From IMG/VR virus record IMGVR_UViG_3300002514_000053, positions 1-44,010 of that record: DNA of 44,010 bases. One strand, written 5' to 3'. This document shows, one piece after another, positions 4 through 26,818 of the stretch. Positions within the stretch are counted from its first letter, which is position 1. Every line of letters begins with the position of its first letter. The DNA comes from a virus. The position numbers were made by a program, and so were the translations under genes. Under the pieces are notes generated by a model, which ran no database searches, was not told where the DNA came from, and saw nothing but the letters and a program-made list of their open reading frames with translations.

Positions 4-350
4 TGGTGGAGGTGTCGGGAGTCGAACCCGAGTCCTAAATATTTCCAATATAACGTCATTCACAAGGTTAGTCAGTTTGCGAACTCTGACAAACTCACAC
101 CGCGCACTATCAAGTTTGTCCTATGGGTCCTACTTGAAAAAACCACTTGACCGTCTACCCTCCGAAGAGGACCATCAACGGAACAGTCTTTGGATAACAA
201 GGCTCTCATTATTCCCCGTGATTATGCCGCTAGGGCGTAATCAAAAGTAACGTTATCGTTAGCAATTAAAGTTTTGAATGTTTTTACTGTGCCACTCACA
301 CACCCTTGCACGTTATATTTTTAATACTCAGTCGATACCAGTTCACCCCC
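4..350 (-). ncRNA. ssrA: tmRNA (ssrA), one-piece, tag ANDNVTFDYALAA
   Basis: Transfer-messenger RNA that rescues stalled ribosomes and adds a degradation tag. Read on the minus strand it begins GGGGGTGAACTGG and ends CTCCCGACACCTCCACCA. The 5' GGGGGTG pairs with CACCTCC over 7 bp and includes a G-U at the third pair, the alanine identity element. The T arm is TCGGG-TTCGACT-CCCGA and CCA is encoded (4-6). A 10-bp P2 helix joins 310-319 with 47-56 and extends by a further AT-rich helix. A UUCG-capped hairpin lies at 159-170 and a pseudoknot is readable at 71-94. The resume codon GCT is at 261-263 and the tag stop TAA at 222-224. The 5' and 3' halves are in normal order, so this is not the two-piece form known from alphaproteobacteria and some cyanobacteria. 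The 5' end overlaps the primase stop codon, and a shared transcript with primase is likely. Recognition is firm; activity is inferred. Confidence 0.95.
222..263 (-). other. tmRNA tag reading frame
   Basis: Fourteen codons from GCT to TAA encode A-N-D-N-V-T-F-D-Y-A-L-A-A. The AND start and the YALAA end match the general bacterial tag pattern; the C-terminal ALAA is the type recognised by ClpXP in well-studied bacteria. The middle NVTFD makes the tag 13 residues, longer than the 10-11 of many bacteria. An A-rich stretch precedes the resume codon, as is usual. Confidence 0.93.
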
Positions 351-1287
351 GTAAGTTAATTATTTCATCTATTAAATAGTCATAAGATTTTATAAATTTT
401 GCTTCTTTCTTGCGCTTTAGAAAGGCTGCATTAGACATGCCTCCTACATCTTCATAAGGAGAAATATCAATCTGATGTATTTCTATATCATATTCTAATA
501 GAGACTTAATTATTTTTAAAGCTTTTGTCTGCGCATCTAAATCCAAAGCAATATAAATTGGTGTGTCATTTTTAGCAATCTCTTGAAATAATTTTGAATC
601 TTCCCTCAAAGTAGATCCCAATAATGGAACGGCGTTTTCTCCTGCCTTAATGGCATCGAACACACCCTCGACCAAAATCATATCCTCATCAAAATCTAGA
701 TATAACTCATTGAAAATAATGTCTTTTGATACTTTCGGATTTTGATATTTCTTCCAATCTCCTGAATAACTTCTTGCTATGAAATAATTTGCTTTTCCCG
801 TCATTCCGAATGAGGGAATAATGATACGTCCTTCATATTCTCCATCCAAACAATAACCCATTTTCCATTTAATAATGTCTCGCTTTGTATAGCCTCGACT
901 TTCCAAATAATTTAGAGGGTAGAGAGAGGTCTTAGGAAGCTTTCTGTTGGCAAGAGATATGAACTCTTTTGGTAACTCAAGTACTTGTTCTGGTTCTATT
1001 TCTTCTTTCCCAAACAAAGCTTCAGATAACGACTTTGTTTCAATCTCCTGTGTAAGTGACGCCCACTCTCTTCGTTGCTCAAATGTTCCATAACGACGAA
1101 TAAGTCGATAAATGGAACGACCAGCATATTCACAAACCCAACATTTAAATACATCTTTATCAATATTAATTGAAAGCTTGTTTTTATGATGTTGACACTT
1201 GGGGCATTCAAATAGAAGCTCATTACCAGAACGATGAGAATAACCTAAAGCACTACTTAAAATCTTTAGCTTTTTTCCACTTGACAT
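343..1287 (-). CDS. DNA primase, CHC2 zinc finger plus TOPRIM
   Basis: Primase that lays RNA primers at the replication fork. The N-terminus (about residues 25-55) has a zinc finger with cysteines C28, C31, C49 and C52 (CPKC and CWVC), as in DnaG/T7-type CHC2 domains. The TOPRIM domain follows (about 200-275), with E207 in ILVEGVFDA and the DxD pair D249/D251 in IALDLDA, the metal-binding residues of the family. At 314 residues it is shorter than bacterial DnaG and has no fused helicase; a separate helicase is presumably elsewhere in the genome. The start overlaps the end of the RuvC-like gene by 22 bases, so the two are probably translated together. The UGA stop (343-345) lies in the acceptor stem of the tmRNA. 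Confident of family. Confidence 0.93.
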   Translation of the reverse strand: MSSGKKLKILSSALGYSHRSGNELLFECPKCQHHKNKLSINIDKDVFKCWVCEYAGRSIYRLIRRYGTFEQRREWASLTQEIETKSLSEALFGKEEIEPEQVLELPKEFISLANRKLPKTSLYPLNYLESRGYTKRDIIKWKMGYCLDGEYEGRIIIPSFGMTGKANYFIARSYSGDWKKYQNPKVSKDIIFNELYLDFDEDMILVEGVFDAIKAGENAVPLLGSTLREDSKLFQEIAKNDTPIYIALDLDAQTKALKIIKSLLEYDIEIHQIDISPYEDVGGMSNAAFLKRKKEAKFIKSYDYLIDEIINLRG

Positions 1288-1787
1288 AAATACCCTGCAT
1301 TTGCGATAACCCAGCTATCTGCTTTGTCGAAGCATTCAGGGCGCGGATTACCGTGCTTGGTATATACTATATCAACATCTGGCACATTGTCAAGCACAAA
1401 TTTTATAACTTCTTGCTTTGCTTTGGTACCTTTCGGAATTTTAATCCCACATTTCTTGCGAGCAGATGTTGCAGCAATATATTCAGGCTCAATATTAAAA
1501 AAACTATAACACATCCAAGAAACAACGCCATTAAATTTAGAGAGTGTTGAAAGAGTCTTGGCAGAGGAAAAACCGGAGCGAAATGATTGGAGTGATTGTT
1601 CGATATAGATATGCGTTAACTTGTATTTATATACCATATCCTCAAGCTTTCCATGTATGACGCAGGCTTTTTTGAAAAAGTTCTTATATTTTCTAGTATC
1701 CCAAGCCTCATTATAAATTATATTACCATCATTATCAATAATGGTCGCACCTGTTATGCTGGTGCTTATATCTAAGCCTAGAATCAT
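1266..1787 (-). CDS. RuvC-like Holliday junction resolvase / RNase H-fold nuclease
   Basis: Likely structure-specific endonuclease that resolves branched DNA before packaging. The first strand carries ILGLDIST with the catalytic Asp, the middle carries IYIEQS with the catalytic Glu, and the end carries FDKADSWVIA with the last acidic residues, the order seen in RuvC. I chose the ATG at 1785-1787 (173 residues). The reading frame stays open to a TTG at 1811, but that would add eight residues before the first beta strand and overlap the upstream stop. No strong ribosome binding site is visible at either. The gene lies between virion genes and primase and overlaps primase by 22 bases. Phage RuvC-like resolvases of this length are known; exact substrate is inferred. 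Confidence 0.85.
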   Translation of the reverse strand: MILGLDISTSITGATIIDNDGNIIYNEAWDTRKYKNFFKKACVIHGKLEDMVYKYKLTHIYIEQSLQSFRSGFSSAKTLSTLSKFNGVVSWMCYSFFNIEPEYIAATSARKKCGIKIPKGTKAKQEVIKFVLDNVPDVDIVYTKHGNPRPECFDKADSWVIANAGYLCQVEKS

Positions 1788-1800
1788 AACAAATATTCTA

Positions 1801-3012
1801 TCATATATCAAGCTTAAGTTTAAAAGTTAAATCTCGATTCTCTGTTTTCTTTACGGGACGTGCAAGATTAGCAATTCCAATTAAATTATCATTATCATCA
1901 TAGATGCCTATTTTTGTTATAAAAGTTTGTTTCTTAAAAGGTTCACCATAACACTGAAATGATGAAGAAACGGTATTTTTAACTTTATTATTTTCAACCT
2001 CATAAAATTGTGTGGAAGACGTTACATATTGGTGATGTTTGGCATCCACAACACCAGCGGACGAACTAGTATTGAACTCAATATAAGTAGGATTGTGACT
2101 ATAGTTAAGTTCACCAGCTGGAGCGTGGCACATCATTGTCATGACAGATGTATTTTGAGAACCACTAAAATTGATTGAATAAGAAGATGATGGTGTTGAA
2201 TCTGTTGAACGGCCAAAAGCATCCCATTGTGTCGGAATTGGAGAACCATCTTCAATATAATCTTCTTCGTGTGCTGAGAGGGGCCACGAGCCTGTCAACA
2301 ACATTATTCCTTCTGGATATAACACAACACCACCGACCTTACCGTCATTGGTAGAAAGAGCACCCGATACTTGGTATAGGGCACCATCTCTATCTTTATC
2401 AACTAACTGTCCTATCGATGAACCTGATACAAAAAATTCTAATTTAACAGTCCCCTTTTTAATTTTAGACCCATAAAATATCGAAGGAATATTCAGCAAC
2501 GTCATGCTTTGGTTGTTTTTGTCCCAATGAAAATCACCATAAGATGCAGAATAAGCATAATGAGGTGTCAAATATACTTTATCATTAAGTATATTTTTAA
2601 GTGCTTGGAGCTGTAAAGTGCCGGTAAGATTAGCTTGATCTGTCAACCCCCATCCAGGAAAAGAGGTAGTAATGCTAGCTGTCATGGGATACGAACCATT
2701 AATTTCCGTACCATAATCGTCTTTCATATAATCCGTAAATTGCTGCTCTACGGGAGTATCACTAGTATAATCATATTTAAAAGAAGTCAACGTCGAATCT
2801 TTCAGCATAAAAGGATAAATTAAATTATCCGGTGCCCGATTGACATTCAATTCATATAGATTAGCATATCCCGTGGGATTATTGGAATTGACTAAGGTTT
2901 GATCTTGATTTTGATAATATACTTTGGTACCATATATATAAAAACTTACTTCCGGATAAGTGGTTATGGTGTTTCGAAATAAATCATTTTTACCAAATTT
3001 ATAATACGGCAT
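1801..3012 (-). CDS. Virion structural protein, paralogue of the next gene upstream (403 aa)
   Basis: Probably a tail or baseplate-associated structural protein. It is rich in Ser, Thr, Gly and Asn with many short beta-type stretches, typical of phage fibre and decoration proteins. From about residue 180 on it resembles the 356-residue product of the upstream gene: KKGTVKLEFFVSG against KKGSVNIELGVTG, VGGVVLYPEGIMLLTGS against KGGVVFYQAGIAAITAS, GELNYSHNPTY against NEFNYSSNPTY, and the ending KIGIYDDNDNLIGIANLARP against TVGLYSAKNELLAVAKVSEP. The N-terminal halves are different, which suggests a common C-terminal module with divergent N-terminal parts. No enzyme motif seen. The start is 10 bases from the upstream stop. 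Confidence 0.8.
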   Translation of the reverse strand: MPYYKFGKNDLFRNTITTYPEVSFYIYGTKVYYQNQDQTLVNSNNPTGYANLYELNVNRAPDNLIYPFMLKDSTLTSFKYDYTSDTPVEQQFTDYMKDDYGTEINGSYPMTASITTSFPGWGLTDQANLTGTLQLQALKNILNDKVYLTPHYAYSASYGDFHWDKNNQSMTLLNIPSIFYGSKIKKGTVKLEFFVSGSSIGQLVDKDRDGALYQVSGALSTNDGKVGGVVLYPEGIMLLTGSWPLSAHEEDYIEDGSPIPTQWDAFGRSTDSTPSSSYSINFSGSQNTSVMTMMCHAPAGELNYSHNPTYIEFNTSSSAGVVDAKHHQYVTSSTQFYEVENNKVKNTVSSSFQCYGEPFKKQTFITKIGIYDDNDNLIGIANLARPVKKTENRDLTFKLKLDI

Positions 3013-4107: not shown

Positions 4108-5100
4108 TTAAACTTTCTTGATATATCTAATGGGTATATCCAAGCGATACCCAGTTGTAACGCCTGTTACCCTAGCAATTGAATCAATAATCTTGAATGT
4201 AAACGCGCTATAGTCCTCGCCGCTTAATGATAAATCAGTTTTTGTACTACCTAATTTATCAAAAAGTGTAGTGGAGGTTGCTATATTAGTTGATGCTCGA
4301 ATTGCAAACATTAGGCGTGTGCCAAGAGGACCCAAAATAGCAGACTTTGTTGCTGTTGGATTTTGAGTAGAAGCAGGAGCAATCTTCGTCACATATTGCG
4401 AACCATGAACATAATAATTTGCAATTCTATCATCATCAACAAAATTTACCGGTGCTAGTGTTTGGGTAGTCTTAGACGGAGCTGTCTGAAGTTGTCCTAA
4501 CCTATCATCTAATTGGATAAGGTATTGAGTTTCTGTTAAATCAGCATCCAATGGAGTACTTTGTGGAATTTTAATCGTATCCAACCCTTGATCAATGACA
4601 ATCATCGAGGTATTTTTAGGAGCATCAGTAGTACCATCACCGCGTATAACGCCGGGACGGATGTAAAGCTGACGAACACTAGTATTTGTTGCAGAAGCTG
4701 CTGCTAATGTTTTTGAGGTATCTAAATCAGCAGTTACATATATTACATTATCGGTACTCAAAACGGCACTTGTCGAAGTAACCAATTTGCTATTAACAGT
4801 ACCATTAACTAATTTTAAAATTGGTAAAAATAGAAGATCATTTCTAGCAATCGTAACTAATTTGGATCTAATTTGTGCACCGTTATCAGTAAAAGCTTCC
4901 AGAACAGGTGTCTTGAGAATATCTATATCTCTTAGAGAGGTTACTTTACTAAGATCATATTTGCCATAATCAATTTCATCGTCGCCTACAGTGAACTTTG
5001 CAATCCTAAAAGAACCGTCACCTCTTGCCATCCTTTCGCGTCCTAAATCAGTCAGAACGGCGTCTAAAATTATATCGCCGGAATTATCTAAAAAACCCAT
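4108..5100 (-). CDS. Virion structural protein with an N-terminal 'LTxxG...GDDE..Y' module (330 aa)
   Basis: Likely baseplate or tail structural protein. The first 50 residues hold VLTDLGRERMARGDGSFRIA followed by a conserved-looking GDDEIDYGKYD. A similar arrangement opens the 418-residue protein encoded at 12776-14032, so the two probably share an N-terminal domain that docks on the same structure. The rest is Thr/Ser/Ala-rich beta-type sequence ending in a basic LDIPIRYIKKV. A ribosome binding site GGAG lies 7 bases before the ATG, and the largest gap of the window (5101-5208) precedes it, so this gene may begin a separate transcript or follow an RNA processing point. No enzyme motif. Confidence 0.78.
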   Translation of the reverse strand: MGFLDNSGDIILDAVLTDLGRERMARGDGSFRIAKFTVGDDEIDYGKYDLSKVTSLRDIDILKTPVLEAFTDNGAQIRSKLVTIARNDLLFLPILKLVNGTVNSKLVTSTSAVLSTDNVIYVTADLDTSKTLAAASATNTSVRQLYIRPGVIRGDGTTDAPKNTSMIVIDQGLDTIKIPQSTPLDADLTETQYLIQLDDRLGQLQTAPSKTTQTLAPVNFVDDDRIANYYVHGSQYVTKIAPASTQNPTATKSAILGPLGTRLMFAIRASTNIATSTTLFDKLGSTKTDLSLSGEDYSAFTFKIIDSIARVTGVTTGYRLDIPIRYIKKV

Positions 5101-22959: not shown

Positions 22960-24610
22960 CTAAATCTTCCTCGACTCTAAATTTAAACTCGTCTCTTACA
23001 TTTGCATAGTTATTGTTATTAAAATAAACAAATTCTAGCTTATAGCCATATCCAGGCTCAAGAAGTGACATATCTAAATCGAAATAAGAGCCAGAGGCGT
23101 CATAAGATAATCTTGTATATGAACCAGCAGAACCATTACTCTGCGGAGTGGAGCTTCCAGTACCAAAGGATATTGCCAGTGTACCATCAATTATTCTCGT
23201 AACTCTATAATAAATATCTTCCAAAATAAAATTCTGTGGATCTGCATTAGCTACAGTGTAGATTGATGGATTCCAATCCTTTCGTCTTGCAAAAAGTTCA
23301 AAGCGTGCTTTTTCATTGTTCAAATATGAATCTTTAAGATTAGTTATATTAAAGACATATTCAGGCTGTGTGGAAACACTAGATAACCCATAAGTTGATG
23401 GAGCGAAAGAACCCGTGTAAATGACTGTTCCTGGTACTCCGGACTCATTTAGGTACCAGACATCAAATATTCGTGTAAGTGCCGGAGAAGACGCCGTAAT
23501 GGCGAATGACGCCGAATATATACCCATAGTATCAGGCAATGATTGTTTATTAGCTAATACAAAACCACCACTAATTACAGTTGGGGTATCCTCAGAAACA
23601 TTTGAAACACTCGTAACAACGTTTAATGCAGAACCAGACGGTTTCGTATTATCAGTAGAGCCGGAAAATAATTGAACAAAAACAGGCGGTACCATAGCAC
23701 CTTGTTTATATCCCCATGGATCACCAAAAGTTTTAAGTTGCCCATTGACATAATTATACACGAAGAATTTATTAAGATTATCCGTCGCTGGAAGAAGGCT
23801 ACTACTATAAAAAGTCTTTGCCCGGTCATCTTTAAGAGAAGAATCCCACCTTGCTTCGACTACAGGACGTTTAAAGAAAAATTGTGTTTTACGTGCAAAG
23901 AATTTCTTAGTATAGTAAGATCTTTTAGCTCCATCTGGATTTTGAATCGAAGAACTTAAATCAACACCAAGAGAACTGGAAAAAAACGCTTCTTGACTTG
24001 ATGTTAAATGGATCCCAAGTCCATAATTTGAAAAGCCGCCGCCGCTTGAGCCAGTAATCCATTTTTCAACAATATCGGTGATATCTAATTCAATATCTTG
24101 ATTAGCTTTCGTTAAGGTCTGAGTCTTTTCATATGCATTTAAATAATCACCGCCAATATTTGTCCAACTAGTAGTCCCCGCACTTTTTATCCAATTTGCG
24201 CCCACGCCATCCTTAGTTAAATCCGTGTAATCATCTATATCCATCCCATAGCCTTCTTCCCAAGTGCGGCTTAGCGGAGTAACAACATATTTGGGATCTT
24301 CAGGAGTTGTTTGACCATGTTTGGCATTAAAAAGACGTAAATAAAATTTTACACTGCCGGATTCCGGAAGCACGGTGGTTCTATCAGTTCTCATTTGGGC
24401 ACTATCAAATTGAACCAAAATCCTAGATAATTCTTGTGTCTTAGAAAAACCGATAGTGGAACCAGAAGAAATCATCTGCCCATATATGGAAAAAACCTCC
24501 ATCACATCAGAAGCTCCCATGTTGGCTCCAGTCGCCCTAGTCCGGAGATTTGGATCAAAAGCATTTGTTATGGTGGTATCTTTAGTTGCTATATATTTTT
24601 TTATTGCCAT
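22952..24610 (-). CDS. Structural protein with DNRLRE-like beta domain (552 aa)
   Basis: The first 250 residues have the layout of DNRLRE-type carbohydrate-binding-like domains: DTTITNAFDPNLRTRATG, SRILVQFDSAQM, SGSVKFYLRLFNA, PLSRTWEEGYGMD and DIELDITDIVEKWITG. These are found in extracellular and fibre-like proteins. The remaining residues are Ser/Thr-rich beta sequence ending in FKFRVEEDLDG. It lies directly after gp6 (TAATG stop-start overlap) and overlaps the giant downstream gene by 8 bases, so it is probably a baseplate-attached protein, perhaps connecting a fibre or the LamG protein to the wedge. No enzyme motif. Family assignment is by pattern only. Confidence 0.75.
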   Translation of the reverse strand: MAIKKYIATKDTTITNAFDPNLRTRATGANMGASDVMEVFSIYGQMISSGSTIGFSKTQELSRILVQFDSAQMRTDRTTVLPESGSVKFYLRLFNAKHGQTTPEDPKYVVTPLSRTWEEGYGMDIDDYTDLTKDGVGANWIKSAGTTSWTNIGGDYLNAYEKTQTLTKANQDIELDITDIVEKWITGSSGGGFSNYGLGIHLTSSQEAFFSSSLGVDLSSSIQNPDGAKRSYYTKKFFARKTQFFFKRPVVEARWDSSLKDDRAKTFYSSSLLPATDNLNKFFVYNYVNGQLKTFGDPWGYKQGAMVPPVFVQLFSGSTDNTKPSGSALNVVTSVSNVSEDTPTVISGGFVLANKQSLPDTMGIYSASFAITASSPALTRIFDVWYLNESGVPGTVIYTGSFAPSTYGLSSVSTQPEYVFNITNLKDSYLNNEKARFELFARRKDWNPSIYTVANADPQNFILEDIYYRVTRIIDGTLAISFGTGSSTPQSNGSAGSYTRLSYDASGSYFDLDMSLLEPGYGYKLEFVYFNNNNYANVRDEFKFRVEEDLDG

Positions 24611-26437: not shown

Positions 26438-26818
26438 TTAGTTATTTTCAGCGAAATCCAATCTCAATGTATCACTCTTTCCAAGATTGGGAATTCGATA
26501 AACAATTGCAATACCTAATAAGTTTTCATAGTCATTTGAATCAAAACGTATATCATTTATCACAATAAATGGTATATACTTCCCCACTTGGCTTAAAATT
26601 CGGGATTCAATTCTTCCTTCTGTTTGGGATACCATCTGCTCAAACAGAAAATTTCTTATACCAACACCAAAATCAATATCCATTATTCTTTCGCCAGGAC
26701 TTGTCATTATAAGATGAAATAGATTTTGTTTTATTTCGTCGACTAATGTTTTTATTAAAACGAAATGTCCATCAACATTATCAACTGATAGTGGTAATTT
26801 AGCACCAATCCCATACAT
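26438..26818 (-). CDS. 25: Baseplate wedge protein gp25-like
   Basis: Small baseplate wedge protein that contacts the sheath and helps start its assembly; homologous to T4 gp25, and to TssE of type VI secretion. The family signature is SPGERIMDIDFGVGIRNFLFE at about residues 45-65, followed by the helix with RIESRILSQVGKYIPFI and the strand VINDIRF. Length of 126 residues fits the family (T4 gp25 has 132). The ATG has an AGGAG ribosome binding site. A 75-base AT-rich gap precedes it. gp6 follows at once, as expected for wedge genes. High confidence. Confidence 0.94.
   Translation of the reverse strand: MYGIGAKLPLSVDNVDGHFVLIKTLVDEIKQNLFHLIMTSPGERIMDIDFGVGIRNFLFEQMVSQTEGRIESRILSQVGKYIPFIVINDIRFDSNDYENLLGIAIVYRIPNLGKSDTLRLDFAENN

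What the first reader, a model, noticed from the sequence alone, without database searches (positions are those of the whole stretch)
4..350. Complete tmRNA gene in a T4-related phage
Seen: a full one-piece tmRNA with acceptor stem (G3-U), T arm, encoded CCA, P2 helix (310-319 with 47-56), UUCG-capped hairpin, 3' pseudoknot and tag frame. Known: phage tmRNAs are rare, with a few reported, for example in mycobacteriophages of the Bxz1 group. Inference: it may replace or outcompete host tmRNA in late infection, when mRNA is cleaved and nucleases free stalled ribosomes. Its presence beside a giant-protein genome makes ribosome rescue an appealing role.
Basis: partly seen in the sequence, partly recalled or inferred. 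Interest (0 to 1): 0.85.

Follow-up and report, generated by a model that had tools for sequence, protein, structure and literature searches.

The report
Phage-carried tmRNA overlapping its primase gene
A piece of an uncultured marine virus of bacteria carries its own complete copy of tmRNA, the RNA that rescues stuck ribosomes; such phage tmRNAs are already known, but this one belongs to a little-described marine phage clade in which the tmRNA often overlaps the end of the protein gene in front of it.

Summary
Confirmed. ARAGORN and Rfam both find a full-length one-piece tmRNA at exactly 4-350 on the minus strand (tag ANDNVTFDYALAA; RF00023 120.6 bits, E 1e-46). It is a real phage gene: a relative (L002, primase 86% identical) carries it inside a 39.5-kb contig, differing by 3 of 347 bases, two of them a compensating pair in the UUCG hairpin. 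Thirteen full-length members share the tag type ANDNVxFDYALAA and show covariation above shuffled controls. Of 24 large contigs with this clade's primase, 11 carry a tmRNA; no SmpB was found in any contig checked, so host SmpB is probably used. "T4-related" holds only loosely. Phage tmRNAs are not new: 402 of 18,146 phage genomes have one (PMC9004378), including T4-like Melnitz, whose tmRNA is two-piece. Less expected: the primase stop codon is nucleotides 6-8 of the tmRNA in three contigs, so RNase P cutting would make the primase message nonstop; an unrelated 69-aa gene overlaps tmRNAs in the same way in dozens of marine contigs. A self-tagging switch is possible but untested. Best reading: a functional phage tmRNA that supplements host ribosome rescue, a new member of a known kind.

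The parts
4..350 (-). one-piece tmRNA (ssrA), 347 nt, CCA encoded
   Evidence: ARAGORN, Rfam RF00023 120.6 bits, 12 full-length relatives aligned
344..350 (-). acceptor stem 5' strand GGGGGUG, pairs with 8-14; G3-U alanine identity pair
   Evidence: Rfam structure; G3-U kept in 13/13
8..14 (-). acceptor stem 3' strand CACCUCC, followed by encoded ACCA (4-7)
15..31 (-). T arm (UCGGG UUCGACU CCCGA)
   Evidence: 2 of 5 pairs have changes on both sides in relatives
304..331 (-). P2 5' strand
   Evidence: helix 32-41/295-304 has 5 pairs with changes on both sides
35..67 (-). P2 3' strand
276..302 (-). pseudoknot PK1
   Evidence: two helices; UGUG/CACA invariant in 13/13; the second helix is misaligned by MAFFT in some rows
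222..263 (-). tag reading frame GCT...TAA = ANDNVTFDYALAA*
   Evidence: tag conserved as ANDNV[TASDE][FL][DE]YALAA in 13 members
220..242 (-). hairpin over tag end and stop codon
151..181 (-). UUCG-capped hairpin (CCGUUGAUGGUCCUCUUCGGAGGGUAGACGG)
   Evidence: compensating changes in L002, L016, L019, L023
343..1287 (-). DNA primase (314 aa), last codons CGG GGG TGA; stop codon = tmRNA nt 6-8
   Evidence: phrog_47 E 2.7e-38; overlap computed; same in L002 and L024/L064
343..350 (-). 8-nt overlap of primase ORF and tmRNA; expected RNase P cut between 351 and 350
   Evidence: sequence; cut position inferred from the mature tmRNA 5' end
371..380 (-). ACTATTTAAT, promoter-like motif inside the primase 3' end, about 20 nt before the tmRNA
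   Evidence: ACTATTTA 32 times vs 8.5 in shuffles in clade loci, often just before gene starts; the codons also encode conserved D-Y-L, so a coding origin is not excluded
1266..1811 (-). RuvC-like Holliday junction resolvase, upstream in the same gene row
   Evidence: phrog_159

Best explanation
A functional phage-borne one-piece tmRNA. It is transcribed with the primase genes (and perhaps from its own late-type promoter), cut out by host RNase P, charged with alanine through G3-U, and carried by host SmpB and EF-Tu to ribosomes stalled on broken messages. There it adds ANDNVTFDYALAA, so the stub is degraded and the ribosome returns to phage translation. Shown: the gene, its structure, its conservation and its phage setting. 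Inferred: transcription, processing, charging, SmpB use and the benefit to the phage.
For: Full-length Rfam and ARAGORN match. Same gene inside an independent contig with only 3 differences, two of them compensating. In 13 members the Rfam-derived structure pairs in 94.3% of cells, 7 pairs have changes on both sides (shuffles 3.2 +/- 1.1) and the covariation score is 0.161 against 0.108 +/- 0.007; slid controls pair 38-50%. The tag frame, Ala resume codon, YALAA end and stop are kept while residues 6-8 vary. Most carriers share the window's primase or baseplate gene, and 11 of 24 large clade contigs have a tmRNA. No SmpB in the clade contigs. RNase P processing and alanylation are general tmRNA properties (PMC3985003).
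Against: No expression, processing or charging data. Host unknown, so compatibility with host SmpB, AlaRS and proteases is untested. All contigs are fragments, so absence of smpB from them is not proof. Host tmRNA stays abundant in T4 infection (PMC9697503), so a phage copy need not be required.
Confidence: 0.75

Rival explanations
1. Self-tagging switch: the primase message and the tmRNA are alternative products of one transcript. RNase P cutting at the tmRNA 5' end removes the primase stop codon (C|GG GGG TGA), leaving a nonstop primase message whose product is tagged by the tmRNA just released, so tmRNA production shuts primase down.
For: The primase stop is tmRNA nt 6-8 in the window, L002 and L024/L064 (primases 86% and 71% identical to the window's). 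A second, unrelated 69-aa ORF takes its stop from tmRNA nt 6-8 in 34 of 80 loci and overlaps by more in others. Control of a gene through a processed nonstop message and tmRNA is known for arfA (PMC3985003, PMC10107115).
Against: Four other close relatives (G015, G017, G022, L061) have the tmRNA after the primase but not overlapping it. Overlap lengths for the 69-aa ORF vary (8, 10, 13, 27, 40) and some pairs have a gap, which fits simple genome compaction. UGA at nt 6-8 is general in these tmRNAs, so a reading frame running into it ends there about one time in three.
Confidence: 0.15
2. Competitor or decoy: the phage tmRNA mainly occupies host SmpB or replaces host tmRNA to alter which proteins are tagged, for example host proteins for amino-acid recycling.
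For: No phage SmpB found, so both RNAs would draw on one pool. A tRNA-like-domain-only relative exists in phage DS6A and a similar molecule inhibits tmRNA (PMC4131195); L022 carries a comparable 140-nt form. Selective tagging was proposed for Melnitz (PMC9004378).
Against: The window's tmRNA keeps a full tag frame ending in YALAA and all domains, which a pure decoy would not need.
Confidence: 0.1
3. Host tmRNA captured at a prophage attachment site or joined to the phage by misassembly, without function in the phage.
For: The gene sits at the very end of the contig (4-350), and integration at ssrA is known in prophages (PMC9004378).
Against: It is internal in L002 and L024 and in many other clade contigs; it overlaps the primase ORF; it is conserved with compensating changes; neither the exact tag nor a PK1-plus-tag pattern occurs in 84,980 cellular species genomes.
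Confidence: 0.03

Closest known systems
Phage-encoded one-piece tmRNAs (Mycobacterium phage Bxz1 group, Bacillus phage G, Streptomyces BE2/Karimacvirus phages such as StarPlatinum)
   Same: complete one-piece tmRNA with its own tag in a phage genome; StarPlatinum is among the nearest INPHARED DNA matches
   Different: no INPHARED record matches over 80% of the gene; tag differs (ANSNVASAYALAA in Streptomyces phages); unrelated phages
Methylophilales phage Melnitz and pelagimyophage tmRNA (PMC9004378)
   Same: marine, T4-like myophage with its own tmRNA, a frequent but not universal trait of its group
   Different: theirs is two-piece (circularly permuted) with a glutamine riboswitch; the window's is one-piece and the window has no other RNA family match
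Bacterial one-piece ssrA (E. coli used as control)
   Same: same Rfam family, domains and G3-U
   Different: 120.6 vs 295.8 bits for E. coli; this tag was not found in any cellular species genome searched
arfA regulation by tmRNA in E. coli (PMC3985003)
   Same: a message made nonstop by RNase cutting, its product removed by trans-translation
   Different: there RNase III cuts and the target is a backup rescue factor; here the cut would be the maturation of the tmRNA itself and is only inferred

Membership tests
tmRNA (RF00023) | tRNA-like domain: acceptor stem with G3-U, T arm, CCA | tested here: met
tmRNA (RF00023) | tag reading frame with Ala resume codon, degradation-type C terminus and stop | tested here: met
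   GCT...TAA, ANDNVTFDYALAA
tmRNA (RF00023) | P2 and PK1, with support from covariation | tested here: met
   P2 covaries; PK1 present but its first helix never varies and the second is partly misaligned
tmRNA (RF00023) | downstream pseudoknots PK2-PK4 | tested here: inconclusive
   region variable; hairpins found, pseudoknots not tested
tmRNA (RF00023) | alanylation, SmpB binding and tagging activity | not testable with these tools
   needs experiment
two-piece (permuted) tmRNA (RF04321) | 3' part precedes 5' part in the gene | tested here: not met
   gene order is one-piece; the 43.8-bit hit to the permuted model is the shared 5' half, also seen in E. coli at 34.3 bits
T4-type phages (Straboviridae) | core genes close to those of T4-like isolates | tested here: not met
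   best named relatives of the three proteins searched are immuto, Mel-JY01, LR756508 and RM378 at low identity; a T4-type gp25 domain is present

The most novel reading that the evidence does not exclude
In this marine phage clade the tmRNA is wired into a protein gene: its maturation by RNase P removes the stop codon of the overlapping upstream gene (primase in the window; a 69-aa protein in dozens of relatives), so that gene's product is tagged by the same tmRNA, a built-in off switch.
Probability: 0.15. Interest if true: 0.8.

Novelty: new member of a known kind. Interest (0 to 1): 0.45.

Why it matters
It adds a large, uncultured marine phage clade with frequent one-piece tmRNAs, a form reported as scarce in marine phages (PMC9004378: 2.5% of phage one-piece tmRNAs were marine). 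Selection has kept tag and structure with no phage SmpB in sight, which makes it a clean case for asking why phages carry ribosome rescue. The stop-codon overlap gives a specific, testable link between tmRNA maturation and expression of a replication gene.

Tried and rejected
Permuted tmRNA: Rfam RF04321 hits in L011, L015 and L019 looked at first like duplicated 3' halves, but the upstream sequence shows no CCA end and E. coli and Streptomyces phage controls give similar 34-36-bit hits, so this was dropped. Contig-end artefact: rejected by independent internal copies. Repeated CCACCA ends in L019 before ACTATTTAAT: inspected, they follow ordinary ORFs and no further tmRNA was found there. Own sigma-70 promoter for the tmRNA: no convincing one; in L002 a sigma-70-like site lies just after it, before a lysozyme-like gene, and site counts are near chance. 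Phage SmpB: none found. The 69-aa partner as an SmpB-like protein: the AlphaFold model (pLDDT 89) has a small beta-beta-alpha-beta-beta-beta fold with no significant PDB match and no family match to SmpB, so no support.

Full report
Observation. ARAGORN finds one gene in the 44,010-base window, a tmRNA at 4-350 on the minus strand with tag ANDNVTFDYALAA*. Rfam RF00023 matches the same bases end to end at 120.6 bits, E 9.8e-47, gathering score 47. Only the 3' pseudoknot is left open.

Phage setting. The window is a 44-kb IMG/VR virus fragment. The gene upstream on the same strand is a DNA primase (343-1287, phrog_47, E 2.7e-38), preceded by a RuvC-like resolvase. Further on come T4-type baseplate genes (gp25, PF04965; phrog_219) and a late sigma factor by a weak match. 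The nearest named phages are Flavobacterium phage immuto, Microcystis phage Mel-JY01, an uncultured 484-kb phage and Rhodothermus phage RM378, mostly at 26-36% protein identity. So 'T4-related' is right only in the broad sense. Two ORFs of 2,974 and 3,131 aa are present, but nothing ties them to the tmRNA.

Relatives. L002 (39.5-kb contig, primase 86% identical) has the same tmRNA internally at contig 23,725-24,071. The two RNAs differ at 3 of 347 bases; two of these turn CCUC-UUCG-GAGG into CCUU-UUCG-AAGG, a compensating change. Pattern searches brought in eleven more full-length one-piece tmRNAs with tags of the type ANDNV[TASDE][FL][DE]YALAA. On the 13-sequence alignment the Rfam-derived structure pairs in 94.3% of cells, with 7 pairs changed on both sides (shuffled mean 3.2) and covariation 0.161 against 0.108 +/- 0.007; sliding the partners drops pairing to 38-50%. 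In the five sequences with the long form, all four pairs of the UUCG hairpin have changes on both sides. The window's primase or baseplate gene is found in most of these contigs.

Spread. A profile of the primase finds 560 or more related viral stretches. All seven contigs with primase at least 71% identical to the window's, the window included (window, L002, L061, G015, G017, G021, G022), have a tmRNA at or within about 2 kb after the primase; in G017 only its 5' part is left before the contig ends. Of 24 larger contigs (74-196 kb) among the other relatives, 11 carry a tmRNA elsewhere in the genome. Other tag types occur there, such as ANNNLHFEQRLAA. No SmpB was found in the window, in 17 related contigs or in 25 more, while the control search rang in 10 bacteria. 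These are fragments, so this is good but not final evidence that host SmpB is used. Neither the exact tag nor a PK1-plus-tag pattern occurs in 84,980 cellular species genomes.

The overlap. The primase ends ...TTA C|GG GGG TGA in L002 (CTT AC|GG GGG TGA region likewise in the window), where | is the expected RNase P cut; its stop codon is tmRNA nucleotides 6-8. The same 8-nt overlap is seen in the window, L002 and L024/L064. In other relatives the tmRNA usually starts 3-9 nt after the upstream stop, whatever that gene is. In part of the clade a different 69-aa ORF (MWKVYKWNGHYIQG...) lies directly before the tmRNA. A search with it kept 80 loci; ARAGORN finds a tmRNA within 61 nt in 68, overlapping in 51, by exactly 8 nt in 34, and 8 more show a tmRNA 5' end in short loci. 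Only L172, L205 and L231 lack one, and L223 is cut off. So ORF-tmRNA overlap arose at least twice. It may be mere packing. It also means that cutting out the tmRNA would leave a nonstop message, which tmRNA itself would clear, as known in principle for arfA (PMC3985003). This step is inference.

Promoter hint. ACTATTTA occurs 32 times in the clade loci against 8.5 in shuffles and often sits 4-48 nt before gene starts, including directly after tmRNA CCA ends and before the window's genes at 4108-5100 and 26438-26818. One copy lies in the primase 3' end about 20 nt before the tmRNA (window 371-380). The codons there encode conserved D-Y-L, so this is suggestive only.

What is known. Phage tmRNAs were listed for the Bxz1 group, Wildcat, Bacillus phage G and DS6A by 2014 (PMC4131195); 402 of 18,146 phage genomes have one, and T4-like marine Melnitz has a two-piece one (PMC9004378). 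Huge phages carry tmRNA and SmpB (PMC7162821). Host tmRNA stays stable in T4 infection, where it may keep ribosomes available (PMC9697503). The window's gene is a new member of a known kind, in a clade where I found no earlier description of it.

Noticed in passing
L153-L232 (e.g. L153:1001-1210), L141, L147-L150: A 69-aa protein family (MWKVYKWNGHYIQGDLVSKH...IWLDDENHxPxGVIVKKSRG) lies directly before, and often overlaps, a phage tmRNA in about 76 of 79 judgeable marine viral loci; no Pfam, PHROG, PDB or INPHARED match. AlphaFold model pLDDT 89, beta-beta-alpha-beta-beta-beta; one near-identical viral model (A0A516MBE9).
   Followed up: partly
L022:1594-1733 (minus): A 140-nt, mostly tRNA-like-domain-only tmRNA relative (38.7 bits, below cut-off) ending CCACCA then TTTTTT, without a clear tag; resembles the DS6A mini-tmRNA discussed as a possible SmpB decoy.
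   Followed up: partly
L013:1071-1172, L015, L020; also L171 and L182: A 33-aa cysteine-rich ORF (MKxLLHKLxNLFNxxHCCCCCGCCSCxxCSGKC) sits 5-9 nt before the tmRNA in three phages, and a Cys-rich reading frame lies between the 69-aa ORF and the tmRNA in two others.
   Followed up: no
L002:7871-8116, L016, L018, L023, L024, L025: Many otherwise different small ORFs near the tmRNA start with MKITKxQLxxIIKEEL...VLxE, which looks like a shared N-terminal sorting signal, perhaps for capsid targeting.
   Followed up: no
window 371-380, 5138, 5156, 26836 (minus) and clade loci: ACTATTTA(AT) is enriched (32 vs 8.5 in shuffles) just before gene starts: likely a promoter motif of this phage clade.
   Followed up: partly
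L002:7327-7836: A transglycosylase (SLT, PF01464) gene and a small MKITK ORF lie between the tmRNA and a fused SbcD/SbcC-like 1,050-aa nuclease; in L007-L009 the primase abuts the nuclease gene directly.
   Followed up: partly
L019:11699-12047 (minus): This tmRNA has a rewritten T arm (CGACG-UUCGAAU-CGUCG) that still pairs, a strong compensatory case.
   Followed up: no
LR756508.1 92434-92880 and 414804-414915: The 484-kb uncultured relative has two RF00023 matches over the cut-off, one 447 nt long (72 bits) and one of only 112 nt (58.2 bits).
   Followed up: no
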